Assembly: GCA_028710605.1 (NCBI GenBank)
Contig: JAQTTU010000003.1
Span: 62,001-126,000 of the forward strand
Reading direction: 5' to 3'
From: Sideroxydans sp.
Lineage (GTDB): Bacteria; Pseudomonadota; Gammaproteobacteria; Burkholderiales; Gallionellaceae
Length of the DNA: 64,000 nucleotides
A model generated the notes under the pieces. That model searched no databases and had not been told where the DNA came from. It was given only the letters and a program-made list of their open reading frames with translations. Below are positions 61,074 to 61,495 of this stretch, one piece after another. The position numbers were made by a program, and so were the translations under genes. Positions within the stretch are counted from its first letter, which is position 1, and each line of letters begins with the position of its first letter.

Positions 61074-61262
61074 GGCACCCATCCTTGCAAAAATGCGGGC
61101 TTATTTGCCCAAGCAACCGTTCGGGTTATCAGTGAAACACCGGTTCGACGCTCCTTGCTCTCCCACGGGCTTGGTGTCCCAAGGGCTAATCGAACTGCCG
61201 AGCCGGACCAGACCAAATTAACTACCTACAGCAAATTCATGTCCAGCAAAACGAAACATACA
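61074..61262 (-). ncRNA. Candidate bridge RNA region of the IS110-family element
   Basis: This non-coding end lies upstream of the transposase, where IS621-type elements encode their bridge RNA. On the RNA strand a stem CCTTG/CAAGG (61153-61184) encloses GGGAGAG (complement at 61158-61164), which is complementary to the target CTCTCCC including the CT core. The same loop holds CCAAGCCC, close to the left target CCAACCC. Nearer the gene, ACGGTTGCT (plus-strand 61112-61120) repeats exactly the nine bases at the element's far end with its core (60105-60113). This matches the expected target and donor loops. Transcription is not shown. Confidence 0.6.
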
Positions 61263-61495
61263 AGGGGTTGGGGTGAGGGATGTTGATCTGAAGCAAGCTT
61301 TGAGTGCGCTCACAAACCCTCATCCCCAGCCCTTCTCCCGCCTGCGGGATAACCAGCGACTTGGCGGCGGGTTTTGCCGCCTAGTCGAATGGCTAGTAGT
61401 TTCATCAGAAGGGAGTATCAGCGCGCTTCATAATCCCCGCAGAAACAGCTAGAATCCCCGCCCTCGTAACCACCCATTGAATTAAGGAAATCAAT

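What the first reader, a model, noticed from the sequence alone, without database searches (positions are those of the whole stretch)
61074..61264. IS110-family element with a readable candidate bridge RNA whose loop matches its insertion site
Seen: the non-coding segment upstream of the transposase contains, on the RNA strand, a CCTTG/CAAGG stem-loop (61153-61184) holding GGGAGAG, complementary to the target CTCTCCC with its CT core, and CCAAGCCC, close to the left target CCAACCC. It also contains ACGGTTGCT (61112-61120 complement), an exact nine-base copy of the element's other end plus core (60105-60113). Known: IS110-family elements such as IS621 encode a bridge RNA with separate target and donor loops, use a CT core and insert in REP-type palindromes. 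Inference: this is a bridge RNA programmed for the local family D repeat. The right-donor guide was not found convincingly.
Basis: partly seen in the sequence, partly recalled or inferred. Interest (0 to 1): 0.82.

Follow-up and report, generated by a model that had tools for sequence, protein, structure and literature searches.

The report
IS110 jumping gene with guide RNA
This is an ordinary member of a recently discovered kind of bacterial jumping gene that uses a guide RNA to choose where it inserts; its guide can be read from the sequence and partly matches the repeat in which it sits, although this copy's enzyme gene looks broken.

Summary
The headline holds. Minus-strand 61264-60105 is an IS110-group element, and the segment upstream of its transposase encodes a bridge RNA. 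Two fail: CCAAGCCC belongs to a conserved apical hairpin, and the CCTTG/CAAGG stem is not kept in relatives. The true left target guide is ATTAGCCCT (61190-61182).

A 23-pair structure covaries over 24 sequences. In 64 elements with both a guide and a right end, the right guide predicts the five bases after the CT core perfectly in 45. The left guide tracks its own site too: 0 of 2000 shuffles reach the observed fit.

The element sits precisely in a palindromic repeat that has 21 exact pattern matches elsewhere in the genome. Joined ends would form TTGACT-17-TATGTT. This copy's transposase is frameshifted and its left guide fits weakly (3 of 7); the other copy has a stop codon. New member of a known kind.

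The parts
60105..61264 (-). IS110-group insertion sequence, from the left CT core (61264-61263) to the right CT core (60106-60105); 1158 bases counting one core
   Evidence: Ends fixed by comparison with uninterrupted repeats and the second copy
60243..61082 (-). Transposase frame (DEDD domain plus start of the C-terminal domain), start at 61082 or 61073; cut short by a frameshift at the C9 run 60323-60331
   Evidence: PF01548 and PF02371, NF033542 above cut-off, ISCro4 and IS621 in the PDB, frameshift against the second copy
61077..61215 (-). Bridge RNA core (target loop and donor loop), as matched by the covariance model; the transcript probably starts earlier, shortly after 61255
   Evidence: Model R1 match, 140.2 bits (this sequence is one of the 24 in the model); covariation
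61197..61205 (-). 5' strand of the outer target-loop stem, CGGCTCGGC, pairing with 61149-61141 (8 of 9 pairs here)
   Evidence: Helix 1, 10 of its 12 pairs (nine outer, three inner) with two-sided changes
61182..61190 (-). Left target guide ATTAGCCCT (ends in the core CT); matches the own left flank at only 3 of 7 non-core bases in this copy
   Evidence: Family-wide guide-site covariation, 0 of 2000 shuffles
61167..61180 (-).
   Evidence: GGG/CCC pairs kept in 98.6% of cells; no clear site covariation
61158..61164 (-). Right target guide GGGAGAG, complement of CTCTCCC (core CT plus five bases)
   Evidence: 5 of 5 here; 45 of 64 elements perfect
61112..61120 (-). Left donor guide ACGGTTGCT, copy of the right end plus core
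61084..61095 (-). Right donor guide CATTTTTGCAAG, discontinuous complement (CAT, CAAG) of the left end CTTGTATG
   Evidence: CTTG/CAAG 67 of 67, CTTA/TAAG 5 of 5, CTCG/CGAG 4 of 6
61255..61260 (-). -10-like TATGTT at the left end
   Evidence: 17-nt spacing to the -35-like site across joined ends
60120..60125 (-). -35-like TTGACT at the right end
   Evidence: TTGA[CT] near the right end in 52 of 68 elements
60107..60113 (-). Right end ACGGTTG (left donor sequence)

Best explanation
The segment is the bridge-RNA gene of an IS110-group insertion sequence. Shown here by comparison: an RNA with two loops, the first carrying a left and a right target guide, the second a left and a right donor guide, all including a CT core. 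Inferred from IS621: after scarless excision the joined ends make a promoter (TTGACT-17-TATGTT) that drives the RNA; the RNA-transposase complex then pairs one loop with the palindromic repeat (CCC-CT-CTCCC) and the other with the joined ends of the circle (GGTTG-CT-TGTATG), and exchanges strands at CT. The window copy is probably immobile now, because its transposase frame is broken.
For: IS110 transposase families and solved relatives ISCro4 and IS621. RNA structure with 13 of 23 pairs showing two-sided changes and 95.1% of cells paired, 0 of 500 shuffles as good, largely found again by RNAalifold. Right guide against own site: 286 of 320 bases in 64 elements, shuffle mean 101.6 and maximum 133; 28 of 41 distinct guides perfect against 3 of 1640 non-own pairs. 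A further set of 10 elements: 8 at 5 of 5 and 2 at 4 of 5 (one of the ten repeats L069). Left guide: 325 of 525 against a mean of 172.5, 0 of 2000 shuffles. Donor guides and junction promoter. Precise empty site, and a second copy in the same kind of repeat.
Against: No RNA was observed; expression and activity are untested. In this copy the left guide matches only 3 of 7 bases and the outer stem has one mismatched pair. Single-sequence folding gives no signal, and Rfam has no match above threshold. Among 64 elements, 9 match their right site at 3 of 5 bases or fewer. 32 of 99 elements could not be tested for the right guide and 20 of 99 not for the left. The donor-loop outer stem shows no two-sided change and was not found by RNAalifold.
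Confidence: 0.95

Rival explanations
1. The upstream RNA is only a structured leader or regulator of the transposase gene, and the protein alone chooses the site.
For: The RNA region runs up to the start codon, and the right donor guide overlaps the likely ribosome-binding site. Small RNAs regulate the transposase of ISPpu9 (PMC8450116, start of abstract).
Against: Guides and sites change together across elements; L007 and L015, with transposases 86-87% identical to the window's, have different right guides and matching different sites. A leader role could coexist with a guide role.
Confidence: 0.03
2. The frameshift in the window copy is a sequencing or assembly error in a C9 run, and the copy is active.
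For: It lies in a C9 run of a 35-contig assembly, and relatives L007, L008 and L015 have uninterrupted 316-aa frames.
Against: The only other copy in the genome carries a stop codon in the DEDD domain, and the left guide of the window copy fits poorly, both in keeping with decay.
Confidence: 0.25
3. One reading: CCTTG/CAAGG stem with CCAAGCCC as the left target guide.
For: In this copy CCAAGCC matches the left flank at 6 of 7 bases, better than the true guide's 3 of 7.
Against: The stem is no better paired than shuffles (75.0% against 76.1%). The apical segment fits own sites barely better than others' (31 of 2000 shuffles as high), while the bases before it fit far better.
Confidence: 0.02

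Closest known systems
IS621 bridge-RNA system, IS110 group (Durrant et al. 2024, PMC11208160; passages, section 5)
   Same: DEDD transposase with C-terminal domain, RNA in the long left end, two loops with four guides sharing a CT core, discontinuous right donor guide, promoter across the joined ends, insertion in REP-type palindromes.
   Different: The right guide here covers CT plus five bases (background from position 8 on) against 4 bp in IS621, though the paper reports longer right guides in other orthologues. Left-guide signal covers about five non-core bases. Protein similarity to IS621 is remote (E 7.9e-22).
ISEc21 and other IS110-type seekRNA elements (Siddiquee et al. 2024, PMC11187229; passages)
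   Same: Non-coding region upstream of the gene; the match to the bottom strand precedes the match to the top strand.
   Different: The paper proposes a shorter mature RNA; I made no sequence comparison with ISEc21.
ISCro4 (PDB 9t56)
   Same: Closest solved transposase by sequence (E 8.4e-26).
   Different: Its RNA was not compared here.

Membership tests
IS110 group (bridge-RNA insertion sequences) | DEDD transposase (PF01548) with C-terminal PF02371 domain | tested here: met
   Both over their cut-offs; in this copy the C-terminal part is cut by a frameshift
IS110 group (bridge-RNA insertion sequences) | Structured RNA in the long end upstream of the gene | tested here: met
   Covariation over 24 sequences
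IS110 group (bridge-RNA insertion sequences) | Target guides that match the insertion site | tested here: met
   Family-wide; in this copy right guide 5 of 5, left guide 3 of 7
IS110 group (bridge-RNA insertion sequences) | Donor guides that match the element's own ends | tested here: met
   the left donor guide is only partly independent, since it was used to find the end
IS110 group (bridge-RNA insertion sequences) | CT core, insertion without further target duplication | tested here: met
   Joined flanks equal uninterrupted repeats
IS110 group (bridge-RNA insertion sequences) | Promoter made by joining the two ends | tested here: met
   TTGACT-17-TATGTT; in 37 of 54 elements with both ends found, spacing 17 in 36 and 16 in 1. 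Sequence only
IS110 group (bridge-RNA insertion sequences) | RNA expressed and bound; RNA-guided recombination | not testable with these tools
   No RNA or assay data
IS1111 group | Sub-terminal inverted repeats (7-17 bp) and RNA downstream of the gene | tested here: not met
   No exact inverted match over 5 bases between the first and last 60 bases; RNA lies upstream

The most novel reading that the evidence does not exclude
Bridge-RNA genes carry a DNA copy of half of their own target (left guide plus CT), and the element's left end sometimes recombines with it. In L020 and L029 the stretch from the left-end core to the left-guide core is duplicated in tandem, with the joints at CT. If this is guide-directed self-recombination rather than slippage at the same short homology, it is a built-in way for these elements to rearrange their promoter and guide.
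Probability: 0.1. Interest if true: 0.55.

Novelty: new member of a known kind. Interest (0 to 1): 0.28.

Why it matters
It shows that bridge-RNA guides can be read from genome sequence and checked by natural covariation. Close relatives with near-identical transposases but different guides and matching sites are ready-made pairs for studying natural reprogramming, with a right guide of seven bases. It does not change the understanding of IS110 elements.

Tried and rejected
Rfam: one hit, sX15, on the other strand and far below threshold (21.8 against 55 bits, E 0.76); rejected. Single-sequence folding: no signal. CCTTG/CAAGG stem: tested and rejected. CCAAGCCC as left guide: tested and rejected. 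Viral contigs: two exact patterns, 0 matches each. A first left-guide count took, in L020, L029 and L048, the inner of two left ends, which in L020 and L029 is the guide itself; it was repeated with the outer ones. In the second set L212 has the same flanks as L069 of the first set, so 9 of its 10 elements are new. Plasmids: 2232 records hold a relative of the transposase, none at 60% identity or more; only one (L188, E. coli plasmid) was looked at further, where the RNA model also matches (60.7 bits).

Rows left out: one search was given 91 sources, 99 sources (weak, partial, unmatched and duplicate loci were not given), 25 sources (own copies and three elements already in the model not given). 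One search looked at reading frames in 30 of 99 elements.

Full report
What is there. On the minus strand, 61264 to 60105 holds an element bounded by two CT dinucleotides. Its transposase frame (61082-60243) matches PF01548 and PF02371 and NCBIfam NF033542, 'IS110 family RNA-guided transposase', above its cut-off (151.1 against 140 bits). The solved proteins that match are ISCro4 (8.4e-26) and IS621 (7.9e-22). The genome has one further copy, 97% identical (L002), and two other IS110-type genes (L005, L006) near which the RNA model finds nothing.

Insertion site. Joining the two flanks at one CT gives CCCTCACCCCAACCC|CTCTCCCGCCTGCGGGAGAGGGACTTT, the same as uninterrupted repeats printed beside it, for example L164/L165. 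The genome holds 21 exact matches to the pattern CTCANCCCNNNCCCTCTCCC and 46 with up to 2 mismatches; the backward control gave 19. The second copy sits in a variant of this kind of repeat.

RNA structure. One scan of genome contigs gave 95 relatives, of which the best 80 were kept. An alignment of 24 RNA regions (A2), both copies of this genome among them, fits a structure of 23 pairs: 95.1% of 551 cells paired, 13 pairs and 62 cells with two-sided changes, covariation score 0.387. Shuffles gave 83.9%, 7.5, 17.0 and 0.157, none of 500 reached the observed values, and sliding the partner by 1-3 columns destroyed the fit. I drew the structure by eye from these sequences, which favours it. RNAalifold found the outer target stem, the apical stem and the inner donor stem on its own, but paired the outer donor stem differently; my outer donor stem shows no two-sided change. 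The model built from A2 matches 81 of 91 sources at E up to 0.1; its own 24 sequences match by construction, and a second hit in the window (57895-58022, E 0.031) is taken as chance. It matches 28 of 399 genomes of the order and 24 of 369 of the class, the own genome included in both.

Right target guide. Of 99 elements, 67 had a readable guide and a right end, found as the left donor sequence (one mismatch allowed) followed by CT 840-1035 bases downstream; 31 had no such end and one no readable guide. Three repeats were dropped, leaving 64. Of the five bases after CT, 5 matched in 45 elements, 4 in 10, 3 in 4, 2 in 4 and 1 in 1: 286 of 320, against a shuffle mean of 101.6 and maximum of 133 (2000 shuffles). 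With one element per distinct guide, 28 of 41 were perfect, against 3 of 1640 non-own pairs. By position the fit is 41/41, 41/41, 41/41, 39/41, 32/41, 34/41, 34/41, then 9/41 and 11/37, which is background; the first two positions are CT, required by construction. A second set of 25 loci gave 10 with a right end: 8 at 5 of 5, 2 at 4 of 5, 0 of 5000 shuffles as good; one of the ten (L212) is the same as L069. L007, L008 and L015, whose transposases are 86-88% identical to the window's, carry right guides for CTTCCCC, CTCTCCC and CTTCGAT; L007 and L015 sit at matching sites, L008 matches 3 of 5. Of the nine elements among the 64 with the window's right guide, the window copy, L013, L016 and L033 match 5 of 5, L002, L009 and L014 4 of 5, L008 3 of 5 and L017 2 of 5.

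Left target guide. Of the 99, 79 had a recognised left end and 75 were distinct. The bases that end in CT just before the apical hairpin match the own left flank at 325 of 525 positions, against a shuffle mean of 172.5 and maximum of 204 (0 of 2000); the signal covers about five bases next to the core. The apical segment scored 290 against 274.8, with 31 of 2000 shuffles as high; I take this small excess to come from relatedness or composition, but have not shown it. In the second copy the true guide matches 5 of 7.

Donor guides and promoter. The left donor guide equals the right end in 63 of 68 elements, rare variants included; as it was used to find the end, this is only partly independent. 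The right donor guide was not used to find the left end: starts CTTG, CTTA and CTCG go with CAAG, TAAG and CGAG in 67 of 67, 5 of 5 and 4 of 6, and two single cases (CTTT, CTCT) are unmatched. CAAG also occurs in 4 of 13 RNAs with another start, TAAG in 0 of 75 and CGAG in 0 of 74. TTGA[CT] lies near the right end in 52 of 68 (all). In 37 of the 54 elements with both ends, joining them gives a promoter-like pair, spacing 17 in 36 and 16 in one.

Comparison with print. PMC11208160 (passages, section 5) describes the same anatomy for IS621, including four guides with a shared CT core, a discontinuous right donor guide, a junction promoter, REP targets and longer right guides in some orthologues. 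PMC11187229 (passages) describes the related seekRNA work. PMC1525189 (listing and start of abstract) reports insertion sequences in REPs. The finding is a new member of a known kind; I could not look it up in ISfinder. For the tandem duplications of L020 and L029 I made one search: three papers held three or more of the six terms, none held 'tandem duplication', one held 'self-targeting' once; only the listing was seen.

State of this copy. The window copy has C9 (plus strand) where the second copy has CCCACCCC, which shifts the frame after the residues that align with the serine region of ISCro4 and cuts off the rest of the C-terminal domain. The second copy has a TAG in the DEDD domain. L007, L008 and L015 have open 316-aa frames. 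Whether C9 is real cannot be told from a draft assembly.

Noticed in passing
L020 (about 252-386), L029 (about 247-365): Tandem duplication (units of about 67 and 59 bases) running from the left-end core CT to the left-guide core CT; seen in 2 of 79 elements with a left end.
   Followed up: partly
L048 (about 1280-1320): A different repeat at a left end: the first bases of the element stand twice, about 20 bases apart.
   Followed up: no
window 24256-24337, 42305-42385, 61323-61339: The target repeat comes in inverted pairs about 65 bases apart, like the paired REPs called BIMEs (name recalled); 6 matches in the window against 0.11 expected.
   Followed up: partly
L195, L197, L198, L208, L214: Five elements share the right guide GTTAACAAG; the four with a right end sit at CTTGTTA. 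The shared target was not identified.
   Followed up: no
L005, L006: Two further IS110-type transposase genes in the same genome without a match to this RNA model.
   Followed up: no
window 61082-61095: The right donor guide (CAAG) overlaps the likely ribosome-binding site AAGGA if the transposase starts at 61073, so donor binding and translation might compete.
   Followed up: no
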